From: Fervidobacterium changbaicum
GTDB taxonomy: Bacteria > Thermotogota > Thermotogae > Thermotogales > Fervidobacteriaceae
Direction: 5' to 3'
DNA: 64,000 nt
Assembly: GCF_004117075.1 (NCBI RefSeq)
Contig: NZ_CP026721.1
Coordinates: 1,984,001 to 2,048,000, forward strand
Below the pieces are notes generated by a model. The model ran no database searches. It was not told the origin of the DNA and saw only the letters and a list, made by a program, of their open reading frames with translations. Positions 13,241 through 27,492 of the stretch are shown piece after piece (within the stretch, counting starts at the first letter, position 1; each line of letters begins with the position of its first letter). The position numbers and the translations under genes were made by a program.

Positions 13241-13268
13241 TGATTAAATGAGTGTCTTTTATCATTGC

Positions 13269-13363
13269 CCTGGTCCCTCCGCCGGTATTACCCGGATCAG
13301 GTTCGAAGGGTCGGGAACTTGACGTTCCCCTCTCAGCCCCGCATTCAGGAGCTCCCCTCCAGG
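13269..13363 (-). promoter_or_regulatory. TPP riboswitch (THI element)
   Basis: On the minus strand the closing P1 pairs CCTGG (13363-13359) with CCAGG (13273-13269). The hallmark GGGGCTGAGAGG of the P2-P3 side and ACCTGATCCGG with TAATACCGGCG of the P4-P5 side are present in order. The aptamer 3' segment GCGGAGGGA is complementary over 9 nt to TCCCTCCGC at the start of the terminator hairpin. Without TPP the two would pair and let transcription proceed; with TPP the terminator forms. Confidence 0.96.
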
Positions 13364-13445
13364 AAATGTGGTTTTCAAGCTTATTGTAACACGAGCTTAA
13401 GCCGCTGTCAATGAAACTTAATTCCCAATGTGATTATTTTCTTGC

Positions 13446-23381: not shown

Positions 23382-24278
23382 TCAATCTAAATCATCACGC
23401 ATGCCTACTTCGTTGAGGATTATAAAATCCTTGTTCCTCCAATCCTTCTTGACCTTCACATGGAGGTCCAAATAAACCTTTGAACCTAAGAAGTATTCAA
23501 TGTCCTTTCTTGCGCTTTCTCCGATTTTCTTTATCATTCTACCTTCTTGTCCGATGATTATGCCTTTCTGACTCTCTCGCTCAACGTAGATGTTGGCTCT
23601 GATGTAAACAACTCCATTTGGCCGTTCTTTAACCTCCTCTACAATAACGGCAACGGAATGGGGGATCTCTTCGTACGTGAAGTGGAATATCTTTTCCCTA
23701 ATCAACTCAGCGGCGATGAACGAGAGAGGTCTATCGACTATGATATCCTCTGGATAAAGCTGAGGACCTTCAGGTAAGTGTTGCTTGATCTTTTCAACGA
23801 GCTCGTTCAATCCTTCCCCAGTTACAGCTGACGTTCGGACCACGTCCAGAAGATTGTTCACGTGTTTTCTGATTAGTTCTTCTATAAAGTCGGCACGTTC
23901 ACCATCAACAAGGTCTATCTTGTTGATCACACCTATCGTTGGTGTTCCAGATTGGTTTATGTAATTCGATATGTGTTCTTCCGGTGTTTCAAATCCTTCC
24001 TTTGCGTCGATTGTGAAGAGCAACAGGTCAACGTTTTTCAATGCTTGGACCGCAGCTTTGACCATGTACTCGCCAAGCCTGTGCAACGGTTTGTGTATAC
24101 CCGGTGTGTCGACGAATATAATCTGGGATTCAGGGTCGGTGTATATAACATTTATTCGGTTCCTCGTTGTTTGCGGTTTGTCCGATACGATAACAACCTT
24201 TTTCTTCATTATTGCGTTAATTATAGAAGATTTTCCAACGTTTGGTTTACCGACAAATGAGACAAATCCACTTTTCAC
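23382..24278 (-). CDS. era: GTPase Era
   Basis: A 298-residue Era. GTPase motifs are GKPNVGKSS (G1), DTPGIHKP (G3) and NKIDLVDG (G4). The C-terminal KH domain contains [23 protein letters not shown]. It binds the 3' end of 16S rRNA and helps assemble the small subunit. It starts with GTG at 24278; TAGGAGGTG lies at the correct distance upstream. An IS110-family element is inserted immediately beyond this site, so era may have lost transcription from its upstream operon. Confidence 0.97.
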
Positions 24279-24302
24279 CTTAACACCTCCTACATAAAAA
24301 TA

Positions 24303-24311
24303 TGGTATAAA
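24303..24311 (+). promoter_or_regulatory. Extended -10 upstream of the IS110 non-coding RNA
   Basis: TGGTATAAA (TGnTATAAA) would start transcription at about 24318, just ahead of the structured region. No good -35 is seen. Confidence 0.4.
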
Positions 24312-24317
24312 TAATTT

Positions 24318-24475
24318 AGCTTAAAAAAATTGAGGGCAGGACAACTTATGTCACCTTGGCTTTTAAGCCATTTTGGGAGTCTGTTGCCTGCCTTTAACCA
24401 TGATTAGTTGGTTGGGCTTTCAGCCCTCGTCAGCATGGAGGATTGGTTCAGTAGGCTCCCTGCCCTCATCAATTG
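24318..24475 (+). ncRNA. Candidate IS110 bridge RNA
   Basis: The stretch upstream of the recombinase folds well by eye. GGCAGG and CAAC (24335-24345, one bulged A) pair with GTTG-CCTGCC (24383-24392), enclosing a loop that contains TGGCT-TTTA-AGCCA. A second domain has CCATG (24398-24402) with CATGG (24434-24438) around GGGC-TTTCA-GCCC. Alternatively TGAGGGCAGG (24331-24340) pairs with CCTGCCCTCA (24459-24468) over the whole region. Two loop domains upstream of an IS110 recombinase are what the IS621 bridge RNA shows. Its 5' and 3' ends are not determined. Confidence 0.6.
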
Positions 24476-24490
24476 AAAGGAGGTTCTTGT

Positions 24491-25690
24491 ATGAATAACT
24501 TCTCCATATTCGTCGGCATCGATGTTTCCAAGGATAAGTTCAACGTCTGCGCTATCTCTAATCCCAGTTCCATCATCTTCGAATCTTCTTTCGATATGTC
24601 CCAGCAAGGCTTTTCCTCCTTCGCAAACAAACTCTCTGCCTTCCCAAAACAATCCATCATCATCGCTATGGAATCTACTGGCTGTTATCATCTCAACCTT
24701 CTGGCTTTCCTTTCTTCCAACGACTTTGCTTGCGCTGTTTTTAATCCTCTAACTGTTAAAAACTTTGCTTCTCTTCGAAAGACCAAAACCGACAAAATCG
24801 ATGCTCGCATTATCGCTACTGCTTTGTTTTACCTACAACATCAAATTCCTTCTTCTGCTTTTGTCAACTCTGAGCTTCGTGATATTGTCAGAGCACGCGA
24901 AAACATTATCCACCGCATCGCAAAAGTTAAAGACAATATCGAAAAACTGCTCAACGTTCTTTTCCCTGAACTCGAAAGAGTTACCAATATCTACAGTGAC
25001 ACTATCCTCAATCTTCTTTCTCATTTCCCTTCTGCCAAGGCTATTCAAAAGGCTCGTAATCTGGATGTGTTCTTTTCCAAAGACCGTGGCAGAAGTACAA
25101 AACTTAATGCTCAAAAACTTAAAGAACTCGCTAATAACTCGATTGCTCAATATTGGCCGATGAAAGAAAAGATTCTTGTGCAAAATATCAAAGAACTACA
25201 ATTTTTACAGCAACAGCTTGAAGAATACGACAAGATGATGAAAGAATATTGCGAATGTAGTGCGATAAACCTTGATATCGAGATACTCACGTCAATACCA
25301 GGTATTGGTGAAAACAGCGCGATGCATTTCTTGGCAGAAGTTGGAGATATCTCAAGATTTAGTACATACAAAAAACTCATTGCGTATTGTGGACTCGATC
25401 CAAGCATTGCCCAATCAGGCAAAAGCAAAGTAGAAGGACACATATCGAAAAGGGGCAATGCCCACCTAAGACGAATACTATGGCTAATGGCAGTGAGTGT
25501 AGTGATTCACAACGAATATTTCCGAACATACTATGAACGAAAAAGGCAGCAAGGTATACCGTACAAAAAAGCGATAATGTCAGTAGTACACAAGTTATTG
25601 CGAACGTTGTACGCAATGTTGAGAAAGAAAGAGAAGTTCAATATTGATTATGCTATCTCACACTCAAAACAAAAATTTAATTTTGCATAG
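24491..25690 (+). CDS. IS110 family transposase/recombinase
   Basis: A 399-residue protein. The N-terminal RuvC-like DEDD domain shows FVGIDVSKDKF, IAMESTGCYH and KTDKIDARIIA. A central coiled coil (about residues 130-240) follows. The C-terminal Tnp domain has TSIPGIGENSAMHFLAEVGD, KKLIAYCGLDPSIAQSGKSK and HISKRGNAHLRRILW, with the Ser of QSGKSK as the likely nucleophile. Family members recombine DNA under guidance of a bridge RNA. The ATG at 24491 follows AAAGGAGG; a longer frame from 24473 would begin before that site. It appears intact. Confidence 0.95.
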   Translation: MNNFSIFVGIDVSKDKFNVCAISNPSSIIFESSFDMSQQGFSSFANKLSAFPKQSIIIAMESTGCYHLNLLAFLSSNDFACAVFNPLTVKNFASLRKTKTDKIDARIIATALFYLQHQIPSSAFVNSELRDIVRARENIIHRIAKVKDNIEKLLNVLFPELERVTNIYSDTILNLLSHFPSAKAIQKARNLDVFFSKDRGRSTKLNAQKLKELANNSIAQYWPMKEKILVQNIKELQFLQQQLEEYDKMMKEYCECSAINLDIEILTSIPGIGENSAMHFLAEVGDISRFSTYKKLIAYCGLDPSIAQSGKSKVEGHISKRGNAHLRRILWLMAVSVVIHNEYFRTYYERKRQQGIPYKKAIMSVVHKLLRTLYAMLRKKEKFNIDYAISHSKQKFNFA

Positions 25691-25708
25691 TTGACTCCTA
25701 ATTCTTTT

Positions 25709-26737
25709 TTATTGATTCACTTGTCCGGAATCTTCAGCTTGTTGTGTATCCTCTTCAAACGTTCTTGCGAATTCACCTGACGCGAGTTTGGTTATAAACG
25801 AACTAACGAGGATTTTTATATCGTCGCTGAGCTTAACTCTTCTGTCGATGTAGTAAAGATATCCGATGATGTTCCTGAGCATTTGTGGAGAGTATATTAA
25901 TACGTGGTTGACAGGTGTGTATTTAGAGTCTTTGAATGAAAATCCCAGAAATCTTGCCGCCCGAGGAGATGAAATCCCAAGCTCTTTGGAAAGGTTCGCA
26001 ATATCGGGCCATTTGTATTCCTTCTTTTTCGGAGCAAAGACCACAATGTTTAGTAATTCTATGAAGTGCTTGGAGATGGCGTATGAAACGATGATAGGCT
26101 CGTAATCTTTGGAGATTTCATCTAGCATATCATTTGCTTTAGTGTAGTTCTGTTCTGAGAGAGCAAAGCAGAACTCGTCCAATCTACTTATGGTTCTTTT
26201 ATAGACCACATCCTCAACATCGCGTGGAGTTGGATGGTCACCAGCATAAAGCTGAAGTTTTTCTAGTTCGTTTAGTATAGCGTATTCATCCGGCCCTGTG
26301 AATTTAAATACGGCTTTTGCCGTTTCTTCTGAACATACTATACCGATTTTGCTTGCGACATCGCTTATAAACTTGAGCCATTTGTCTTCTTCCCATTCTT
26401 TTGGTTTTTCAAACGTTAAGACCTCTACCTTTCCCGGTAGCTTAGTGACTTCTTTGCTCACCTTCTCTGTACGTACAAAGACAGTGACCCAACTTGCGGA
26501 TAAGTCAGTAGAGTAAAACTGTGTCTTTTCGTCTTTAGACCACTCATCGAAATCAACCAAATCGTAAACCTTAGCATTTGCAAACAAACCTAAGCTCACA
26601 CCTGCGTTCTTTAGTTCTTCGATTTTGTTATCATCGTCGGCATATATTTTGTGATACTCCACATCTTTTCCTTTTAAGTATTCTCTTATATAAAGTTCCT
26701 TACCGAGCTGGGAATCACCTGTGAGGTAAACAACCAT
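25709..26737 (-). CDS. holA: DNA polymerase III subunit delta
   Basis: A 342-residue clamp-loader delta subunit, which opens the beta clamp. It starts VVYLTGDSQLGKELYIREYL, and contains the domain-II/III feature FKFTGPDEYAILNELEKLQLYAG followed by a helical collar domain. The sequence is divergent, as is normal for delta. ATG 26737 fits family N-termini best; an in-frame TTG at 26761 lacks a ribosome-binding site. It follows the ABC ATPase closely. The IS110 element lies just past its stop codon, which is intact. Confidence 0.88.
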   Translation of the reverse strand: MVVYLTGDSQLGKELYIREYLKGKDVEYHKIYADDDNKIEELKNAGVSLGLFANAKVYDLVDFDEWSKDEKTQFYSTDLSASWVTVFVRTEKVSKEVTKLPGKVEVLTFEKPKEWEEDKWLKFISDVASKIGIVCSEETAKAVFKFTGPDEYAILNELEKLQLYAGDHPTPRDVEDVVYKRTISRLDEFCFALSEQNYTKANDMLDEISKDYEPIIVSYAISKHFIELLNIVVFAPKKKEYKWPDIANLSKELGISSPRAARFLGFSFKDSKYTPVNHVLIYSPQMLRNIIGYLYYIDRRVKLSDDIKILVSSFITKLASGEFARTFEEDTQQAEDSGQVNQ

Positions 26738-26757
26738 ATTCTGCCACTTTCTCCCCT

Positions 26758-27492
26758 TCAAATGCCTTTTGTGGTATTCTCTATGACCTCTACAATCCTA
26801 CCGTTTTCCATTCTCATTATCCTGTTTGCTATCTGAGCAACATTTTGGTCATGTGTTACTATAACGAATGTCGTTCCAAACTCTCTATTAAGCTCGATTA
26901 TTAGCTTCTTTATCTGCTCGCCGTTTTTCACATCGAGTGCACCTGTTGGTTCGTCCGCCCATATGATCTTTGGTTTTGTAGCGAGCGCACGAGCAATTGA
27001 GACCCTTTGTTGTTCTCCACCAGATAACTGTGAAGGGTATGCATCTTTTCTATGGGAGATTCCCATCAATTCGAGCAACTCTAAGGCCCTCTTTCTTGCG
27101 TCTGCAACGGGAACCTTGTTTAAGAGAAGTGGTAATTCTGCGTTCTCTACAGCGGTTAGTACCGGGATCAGATTGAAGAATTGGAATATGAATCCCATAC
27201 TCTTTGCCCTGAATTTTGCCTTTTCTTCTTCGGACATCTTGGTTATCTCCTGGCCGTCAATGACTATCGTCCCTGATGTGGGAATATCGAGCCCTGCCAA
27301 CAAGTTCAACAAAGTAGTTTTTCCCGAACCGGAGGGACCTAAAATCGCAACAATTTCTCCCTTTTTTATCTCCAGGTTCACAGAATCGAGCGCAACAACC
27401 TTTGAACTACCAGAACCGTAAATCTTGGAAAGATTCTCCGCTTTCACTATAGCTTCCACGAGCTCCCCCTGGCCGACATTTTTTAAATCCAT
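26758..27492 (-). CDS. ABC transporter ATP-binding protein, LolD/MacB type
   Basis: A 244-residue ATPase. Walker A GPSGSGKTT, Q-loop FIFQFFNLIPVLTAVEN, signature LSGGEQQRVSIARAL, Walker B IWADEPTGALD and H-loop VTHDQ are present. The FNLIP.LTA.EN and DEPTG.LD wording is typical of ATPases that serve FtsX/MacB-type permeases (lipoprotein release, antibiotic or peptide export). No permease gene is adjacent. GAGGTGA precedes ATG 27492. It is embedded in the coaD-holA operon. Confidence 0.92.
   Translation of the reverse strand: MDLKNVGQGELVEAIVKAENLSKIYGSGSSKVVALDSVNLEIKKGEIVAILGPSGSGKTTLLNLLAGLDIPTSGTIVIDGQEITKMSEEEKAKFRAKSMGFIFQFFNLIPVLTAVENAELPLLLNKVPVADARKRALELLELMGISHRKDAYPSQLSGGEQQRVSIARALATKPKIIWADEPTGALDVKNGEQIKKLIIELNREFGTTFVIVTHDQNVAQIANRIMRMENGRIVEVIENTTKGI

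What the first reader, a model, noticed from the sequence alone, without database searches (positions are those of the whole stretch)
24293..24490. Structured RNA upstream of an IS110 recombinase: candidate bridge RNA
Seen: about 200 nt with no ORF but with several helices (GGCAGG-A-CAAC/GTTGCCTGCC, a small TGGCT/AGCCA hairpin, CCATG/CATGG, GGGC/GCCC, and a long-range TGAGGGCAGG/CCTGCCCTCA). Established: IS110 elements such as IS621 encode a bridge RNA with a target-binding and a donor-binding loop. Inference: this region is the bridge RNA of a thermophilic IS110. Possible guide matches: CACCT in the first loop (24352-24356) equals the left flank at 24284-24288, and GGAGTC (24376-24381) is complementary to GACTCC at the right end (25693-25698). 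Such short matches can arise by chance.
Basis: partly seen in the sequence, partly recalled or inferred. Interest (0 to 1): 0.82.

Follow-up and report, generated by a model that had tools for sequence, protein, structure and literature searches.

The report
Bridge RNA aiming at ribosome-binding sites
The 200 bases are very probably the guide RNA of a mobile element that steers its insertion into the ribosome-binding sequence in front of bacterial genes, and each insertion appears to rebuild that sequence so that even genes for basic cell functions can tolerate it.

Summary
Aligned ends fix a CT core. The RNA has the IS621 layout: target loop (left guide 24348-24356, right guide 24372-24379), donor loop, bulged A, handshake bases, and a promoter that forms only across the circle junction (TTGACT-17-TATAAA). 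Helices covary.

The right guide tracks the targets: over 25 sites it fits its own targets better than in any of 20,000 permutations. Two guide alleles in this genome, differing by two adjacent bases, go with different target bases. The left guide is supported only next to the core.

Beyond the finding: targets are reverse complements of Shine-Dalgarno (SD) sequences. 21 of 26 distinct insertions sit at the SD of a gene reading away from the element's left end, 0 of 25 on the right; genes include era, pheT, glmM and pgk. All 25 scorable insertions leave an SD of at least 6 nt. Distant IS110 relatives do likewise. IS900 is the one SD-targeting precedent found. No bench evidence.

The parts
24287..25696 (+). 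IS110-group element, core CT (24287-24288) to core CT (25695-25696); 1408 bp counting one core
   Evidence: alignment of 14 own copies: constant inside, variable outside
24318..24470 (+). bridge RNA (start inferred from the junction promoter; 3' end not known)
   Evidence: conserved structure with compensatory changes; junction promoter
24335..24345 (+). target-loop stem, 5' strand GGCAGG-A-CAAC, with bulged A24341
   Evidence: a flipped-out A in the IS621 target-loop stem is described in PMC11208158 (passages)
24348..24356 (+). left target guide AUGUCACCU, ending on the core CU
   Evidence: matches own targets better than SD-like background, 3.54 v 2.33 of 7 (P 5e-4); signal only at t5-t7; across lineages not significant
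24357..24370 (+). target-loop inner hairpin UGGCU-UUUA-AGCCA
   Evidence: two pairs with changes on both sides
24372..24379 (+). right target guide UUUGGGAG (allele I); allele II in 11 copies is UUAAGGAG
   Evidence: permutation test over 25 sites, P 5e-5; alleles differ at 24374-24375
24380..24381 (+). handshake guide UC, complementary to donor GA (25693-25694)
   Evidence: sequence; handshake guides described in PMC11208158 (passages)
24383..24392 (+). target-loop stem, 3' strand GUUGCCUGCC
24396..24400 (+). donor-loop stem, 5' strand AACCA; may extend outwards with GCCU 24390-24393
24405..24412 (+). left donor guide UAGUUGGU, against donor TAGTTGAC (two wobbles next to or in the core)
   Evidence: sequence comparison with the right end; conserved in relatives
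24414..24426 (+). donor-loop inner hairpin GGGCU-UUC-AGCCC
   Evidence: two pairs with changes on both sides
24429..24442 (+). right donor guide, discontiguous: GU (24429-24430) and GGAG (24437-24440), then possible handshake GA (24441-24442; the A does not pair with the usual target A)
   Evidence: GGAG/CTCC in most lineages, GAAG/CTTC in two
24444..24448 (+). donor-loop stem, 3' strand UGGUU
   Evidence: AACCA/UGGUU with AGCCA/UGGCU in G042a
24459..24468 (+). 3' strand of the long-range helix with 24331-24340 (alternative to the outer target-loop stem)
24289..24311 (+). right donor CCTACAT and -10 box TATAAA (24306-24311) of the junction promoter
25691..25696 (+). TTGACT, -35 box of the junction promoter and left donor plus core
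24491..25690 (+). IS110 recombinase, 399 aa; D11, E60, D102 and D105 (DEDD), candidate catalytic serine in HISKRGN (S319)
   Evidence: PF01548 and PF02371; alignment with ISCro4; motif positions. Residue roles inferred by alignment
24278..24290 (-). rebuilt Shine-Dalgarno AGGAGGTG in front of era (GTG start 24276-24278)
23382..24278 (-). era, GTPase Era, the gene whose SD was the target
   Evidence: NF000908, TIGR00436

Best explanation
The region is the bridge RNA of an IS110-group element. Inferred working: the excised circle joins right and left ends and completes a sigma-70 promoter, so the RNA is made mainly from the circle. Its first loop reads a genomic target (left guide on the bottom strand, right guide on the top strand, both including the core CT); its second loop reads the joined element ends. 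The recombinase exchanges strands at CT. Here the guides spell the complement of a Shine-Dalgarno sequence, so the element inserts antisense in front of genes with its left end against the start codon, and the donor end (CT-CCTAC) supplies the missing half of the SD, leaving AGGAGG before the gene. Shown here: boundaries, structure conservation, right guide following targets, SD location, SD regeneration. Inferred: transcription, RNP assembly, recombination.
For: 14 own copies with constant ends and a CT core. Helices with compensatory changes, 8 of 25 pairs, 0 of 500 shuffles. Right guide: 113.5 of 125 against permuted mean 86.2, maximum 103.5 in 20,000. Two own alleles, UUUGGGAG and UUAAGGAG: TT at t12-t13 in 0 of 3 and 9 of 10 distinct targets (Fisher P 0.014); these two bases are 2 of the 20 variable positions of the 1410-base aligned element. 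Both guides beat an SD-like background of 57 sites in 101 kb of own DNA (left P 5e-4; right P 0.0013 and 5e-5). Donor guide GGAG/CTCC and GAAG/CTTC. Junction TTGACT-17-TATAAA in 5 of 10 lineages, a weaker -10 in the others. Gene start at SD spacing: 21 of 26 left, 0 of 25 right, against 57 of 551 CTCC sites (P 8e-17). After insertion the SD match is 6-10 nt in 25 of 25, equal or longer than before in 17 and shorter by 1-2 nt in 8.
Against: Left guide: across lineages no better than permuted (88.5 v 88.6); t5-t7 alone P 0.074; t1-t4 no better than background (P 0.32) and the G004/G008 left guide not significant (P 0.26). Two copies sit at sites that fit another allele better (L008, L152). The minimum-energy fold of this sequence is a different, closed fold, and RNAalifold pairs the donor-stem 5' strand with the left donor guide instead of the 3' strand. 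No circle junction in the assembly. No Rfam family reaches its gathering score here. 5 of 26 sites have no gene start by the rule used. No promoter reading out of the left end was found, so how the downstream genes are transcribed is open. Sites seen are survivors of selection.
Confidence: 0.92

Rival explanations
1. The structured region is only a 5' leader that controls translation of the recombinase (or an attenuator), not a guide.
For: It lies directly before the CDS, and two mutually exclusive helices (24335-24340 with 24387-24392 or with 24459-24464) are both conserved, as in regulatory leaders.
Against: A leader would not predict right-guide alleles that follow their insertion sites, nor loop segments matching the donor ends with co-change. 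No terminator found in the element.
Confidence: 0.04
2. The recombinase protein prefers SD-like DNA and the loop matches are incidental; SD sites dominate because other insertions were lost by selection.
For: SD targeting is shared by relatives with different guides; left-guide match beyond the core is weak. Survivor bias is real.
Against: Within the SD context, targets differ by guide allele in the same genome with near-identical protein (99% or more), and by lineage. Distant relatives' left-guide regions match their own SD targets better than each other's (7.56 v 6.68 of 9, P 1e-4).
Confidence: 0.04
3. The region is a dead relic: copies are homing by homologous recombination or gene conversion and the RNA is no longer functional.
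For: Some relatives are broken (L162, L166, L160, L161).
Against: Own copies have intact 399-aa frames in 14 of 14, 13 distinct sites, and only 20 variable positions in 1410: recent spread.
Confidence: 0.03

Closest known systems
IS621 bridge RNA (E. coli, IS110 group)
   Same: RNA in the left end, CT core, two internal loops with left and right guides, discontiguous right donor guide, handshake bases, bulged A, promoter formed at the circle junction (PMC11208160 passages and sections 6, 12, 43 part 1; PMC11208158 passages)
   Different: Target is an SD complement instead of a REP-type site (REP from a reference title seen); right target guide reads at least 7 bases (IS621 4); no room for a 5' stem-loop; possible helix closing 5' and 3' ends; recombinase only distantly similar (phmmer E 5.8e-19)
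IS900 (IS110 family, Mycobacterium avium subsp. paratuberculosis)
   Same: Reported to target translation initiation signals (title of Doran et al. 1997, seen only in the reference list of PMC8141618); rarely disrupts coding sequences (abstract)
   Different: Its reported purpose was expression of its own hed gene; a guide RNA was not then known. I did not examine IS900 sequence here
IS110_III of Fervidobacterium (PLoS One 2017, PMC5398504)
   Different: That paper (passages) classified transposases; 'non-coding' does not occur in its text

Membership tests
IS110-group element with bridge RNA | DEDD RuvC-like domain plus Tnp domain with catalytic serine | tested here: met
   PF01548 and PF02371 above cut-off; DEDD motifs and serine aligned with ISCro4
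IS110-group element with bridge RNA | RNA in a long left non-coding end, short right end (not IS1111 layout) | tested here: met
   204 bp from core to ATG on the left; 4 bp between stop codon and core on the right
IS110-group element with bridge RNA | CT core shared by target and donor, no target-site duplication beyond it | tested here: met
   27 of 27 left junctions and 26 of 26 available right junctions read CT; an allelic empty site was not recovered, only an unoccupied orthologous era region in relatives
IS110-group element with bridge RNA | Target loop whose right guide pairs with the right target | tested here: met
   P 5e-5
IS110-group element with bridge RNA | Target loop whose left guide pairs with the left target | tested here: inconclusive
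   better than SD background in own genome, not across lineages; supported in distant relatives
IS110-group element with bridge RNA | Donor loop complementary to joined ends | tested here: met
   sequence match and GGAG/CTCC, GAAG/CTTC co-change; few independent changes
IS110-group element with bridge RNA | Two conserved stem-loops with internal loops | tested here: met
   RNAalifold agrees on the target stem and both inner hairpins, not on the donor closing stem
IS110-group element with bridge RNA | Promoter formed at the circle junction | tested here: met
   TTGACT-17-TATAAA, by sequence only
IS110-group element with bridge RNA | RNA is transcribed, binds the recombinase and directs recombination | not testable with these tools
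   needs RNA sequencing and assays
IS621 orthologue in the narrow sense | 5' stem-loop before the target loop | tested here: not met
   only about 14-17 nt, without a hairpin, between the predicted start and the target stem

The most novel reading that the evidence does not exclude
A broad set of IS110-group elements in Thermotogota, Firmicutes-type bacteria and spirochaetes carries bridge RNAs programmed with anti-Shine-Dalgarno guides: an RNA-guided 'SD-homing, SD-rebuilding' strategy that offers a thousand-odd harmless sites per genome, even before essential genes, and that retargets by point changes in the guide. It would give the RNA-guided explanation for IS900's old preference for translation starts. 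Boldest form: the same loop, being antisense to SDs of mRNAs, could also touch translation.
Probability: 0.6. Interest if true: 0.78.

Novelty: new member of a known kind. Interest (0 to 1): 0.62.

Why it matters
It is a natural, thermophilic bridge-recombinase system with its guides, donor, core and 26 mapped target sites, useful both as a heat-stable tool candidate and as a natural record of guide reprogramming: two alleles in one genome with different targets. SD programming explains how such elements can sit directly before genes such as era, pheT, glmM and pgk. In the papers I could search (terms IS110, IS900, bridge RNA with Shine-Dalgarno or ribosome binding or translation initiation) I found no description of a bridge RNA aimed at SD sequences; only the IS900 title. 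Subscription papers and supplements were not searched.

Tried and rejected
Rfam: no match at gathering in the region; two sub-threshold matches (25.1 and 14.7 bits against 65 and 45) taken as chance. CCATG/CATGG helix: rejected, not kept. A GTAGG segment (24451-24455 read as part of CAGTAGG) was considered as right donor guide and dropped because GGAG at 24437-24440 fits position, core and co-change better. Left guide as main determinant: not supported. Outward promoter or terminator in the element: none convincing; 2 promoter-like + strand matches against 3.2 in shuffles, 0 terminators against 1.2. Circle junction in the assembly: none. Distant class-level relatives (L185-L197) were oriented but not used in the RNA alignment. 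Dropped before counts: L005 (flanks identical to L004) from distinct-site counts; L154 from right-side counts (no right end). L162, L163, L164, L165 and L166 were not used in the 25-site tests (broken or one end missing). L162 and the four sequences L046, L047, L049, L050 were left out of alignment A1. In one search I chose 18 loci by eye, mostly from the hits; L053's left end was parsed wrongly there and was kept; L174, L180 and L181 are copies of one element and L182, L183 of another, so the 18 are not independent. Structure prediction, viral and metagenome scans were not run.

Full report
Context. The window lies in one 2,266,349-base contig. The finding lies between era (minus strand, 23382-24278) and the frame 25709-26761 (minus; no Pfam match; by position after ATP-grasp-free inspection I only guess a DNA polymerase III delta subunit, and nothing rests on it). 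The CDS 24491-25690 has both IS110 domains, PF01548 and PF02371, and aligns with the ISCro4 and IS621 recombinases of the Protein Data Bank with E 1.2e-22 and 5.8e-19.

Boundaries. One search lists 14 copies at 99-100% identity and two pieces of a diverged one. The first 6 kb and other sampled stretches of the contig's two ends are 99.97-99.99% identical, and two copies with identical flanks (L004, L005) lie there, so I count 13 distinct own sites. Aligned flanks give a sharp left end CT|CCTACAT and right end TAGTTGA|CT. The element is 1408 bp with one core. Related copies: G004 six, G008 five (one a fragment), G007 one, a GBS-1 contig one, and broken or partial ones in G006, G042, G043 and the own genome.

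Structure. In an alignment of 10 related RNA sequences, an IS621-like structure with four helices pairs in 98.4% of cells, with 8 pairs and 19 cells changed on both sides; no shuffle of 500 reaches these, and slid controls fall to 22-54% paired. 'Further pair types' is not above shuffles (171 of 500). RNAalifold on its own finds the target stem and both inner hairpins, with 7 pairs changed on both sides, but pairs AACCA with the left donor guide. The minimum-energy folds of single Fervidobacterium-type sequences are mostly closed folds with a long-range helix. That helix is nearly invariant and excludes the outer target stem. Whether it is a second state, a storage form or the true closing stem is open.

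Guides. With CT as positions 8-9, the left guide of the window copy reads AUGUCACCU and the right guide UUUGGGAG. Over 25 sites with both ends, right-guide pairing at positions 10-14 totals 113.5 of 125 (wobble as half); permuting guides among sites gives mean 86.2 and maximum 103.5 in 20,000. The left guide gives 88.5 against 88.6. Against 57 SD-like sites in 101 kb of own DNA the own left guide does better (3.54 v 2.33 of 7, P 5e-4), but only through positions 5-7; the G004/G008 left guide does not (P 0.26). So the right guide and core are well supported, the left guide only next to the core.

Natural retargeting. Own copies fall into allele I (L001-L003) and allele II (L004-L014) of the right guide, differing at 24374-24375. 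Bases after the core: allele I CCTAAT, CCGATG, CCCAAT; allele II CCTT in 9 of 10 distinct sites, the exception being CCCAAT, which fits allele I. The 10-mer ACCTCCTTAA, a full fit to allele II, remains unoccupied at 5 places of the genome (reversed control pattern: 14), while two occupied sites (L009, L014) would read the same before insertion.

Donor side. The left donor guide UAGUUGGU matches TAGTTGAC with two wobbles. The right donor guide GGAG pairs with CTCC; in two elements of G042 and G043 it is GAAG with CTTC. The joined ends form TTGACT-17-TATAAA in 5 of 10 lineages examined; the other five have a -10 fit of 3-5 of 6 at spacing 16-18.

Shine-Dalgarno targeting. On the strand opposite to the element, targets read GGAGG. 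By one rule (start codon 5-10 nt from the core, frame of 80 codons or more) 21 of 26 distinct sites have a gene reading away at the left end and 0 of 25 at the right end; 57 of 551 CTCC sites of background DNA pass (P 8e-17). With a looser rule 22 of 27 copies pass, against 85 of 404 CTCC sites and 478 of 4000 random positions. Genes named by NCBIfam include era, pheT, a beta-galactosidase-type GH1 gene, aspartate kinase (subfamily model), glmM, galE, a PGK/TIM-type gene (best model below its whole-protein cut-off because the locus ends), 2,4-diaminopentanoate dehydrogenase and wecB; several others have no named family. The 16S 3' end in the window reads ATCACCTCCTTTCT. Against it, the SD before insertion matches 5-11 nt and after insertion 6-10 nt; 17 of 25 sites are equal or longer, 8 are 1-2 nt shorter. 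In G004 and G008 the same place before era has an SD-like GGGAGGGA and no element.

Other IS110 elements. Among 73 loci of distant relatives with enough flank, 26 have an SD and gene start reading away within the left stretch searched and 9 on the right; 16 of the left ones show TATAC(A/G) directly before the SD, none on the right (a looser left-only count was 32 of 88, with 17 loci too short). In 18 hand-picked loci the 9 bases ending at the core find a better match in their own non-coding region than in the others' (7.56 v 6.68 of 9, P 1e-4), for instance 9 of 9 in L075 and L118. Protein identities of these to the query are about 27-41%. Relatives of one element are among them, so the P value is optimistic.

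Literature. Bridge RNAs: PMC11208160 (outline, passages, sections 6 and 12, first part of 43) and PMC11208158 (passages). IS900: PMC8141618 (passages), which cites Doran et al. 1997 in its reference list; I saw only that title. PMC7823733 and PMC3196728 (passages) do not link IS110 targets to SD. Fervidobacterium transposases: PMC5398504 (passages).

Open points. No transcript, binding or recombination data. How genes cut off from their promoter by 1.4 kb are transcribed is unknown: no outward promoter was recognised. Observed sites are survivors, so selection for tolerated insertions adds to any targeting; it does not explain allele-specific targets.

Noticed in passing
G000:C1, about 1-44560 and 2222858-2266349: The two ends of the single contig are near-identical in the stretches sampled (99.97% over 6.0 kb, 99.99% over 7.2 kb, with about 1 kb shift between them), as in an untrimmed circular assembly or a large duplication.
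   Followed up: partly
window 25675-25698, minus strand: At the right end the split SD (GGAG) is followed after 6 nt by an ATG inside the element with a stop after three codons (ATG-CAA-AAT-TAA; ATG-TAA in G004). Possible start-stop, or chance; recalls the hed idea for IS900.
   Followed up: no
L167-L172 (G006): A different IS110-family element in G006 with short upstream non-coding DNA and a constant AGCATTCCTGTAAGG-type left flank; not at SD sites.
   Followed up: no
L174-L181 (G008, G004, G005), L182-L183 (G011): Two other IS110 elements of the family also sit at SD sites, with CCCCUCC or CCCUCC in the expected left-guide place.
   Followed up: partly
window 13257-13368: TPP riboswitch on the minus strand (82.2 bits).
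   Followed up: no
L004/L006-L014 v L001-L003, position 24484-24508: A cluster of nine differences over the start of the recombinase gene separates L007-L014 from L001-L006, looking like a recombination patch.
   Followed up: no
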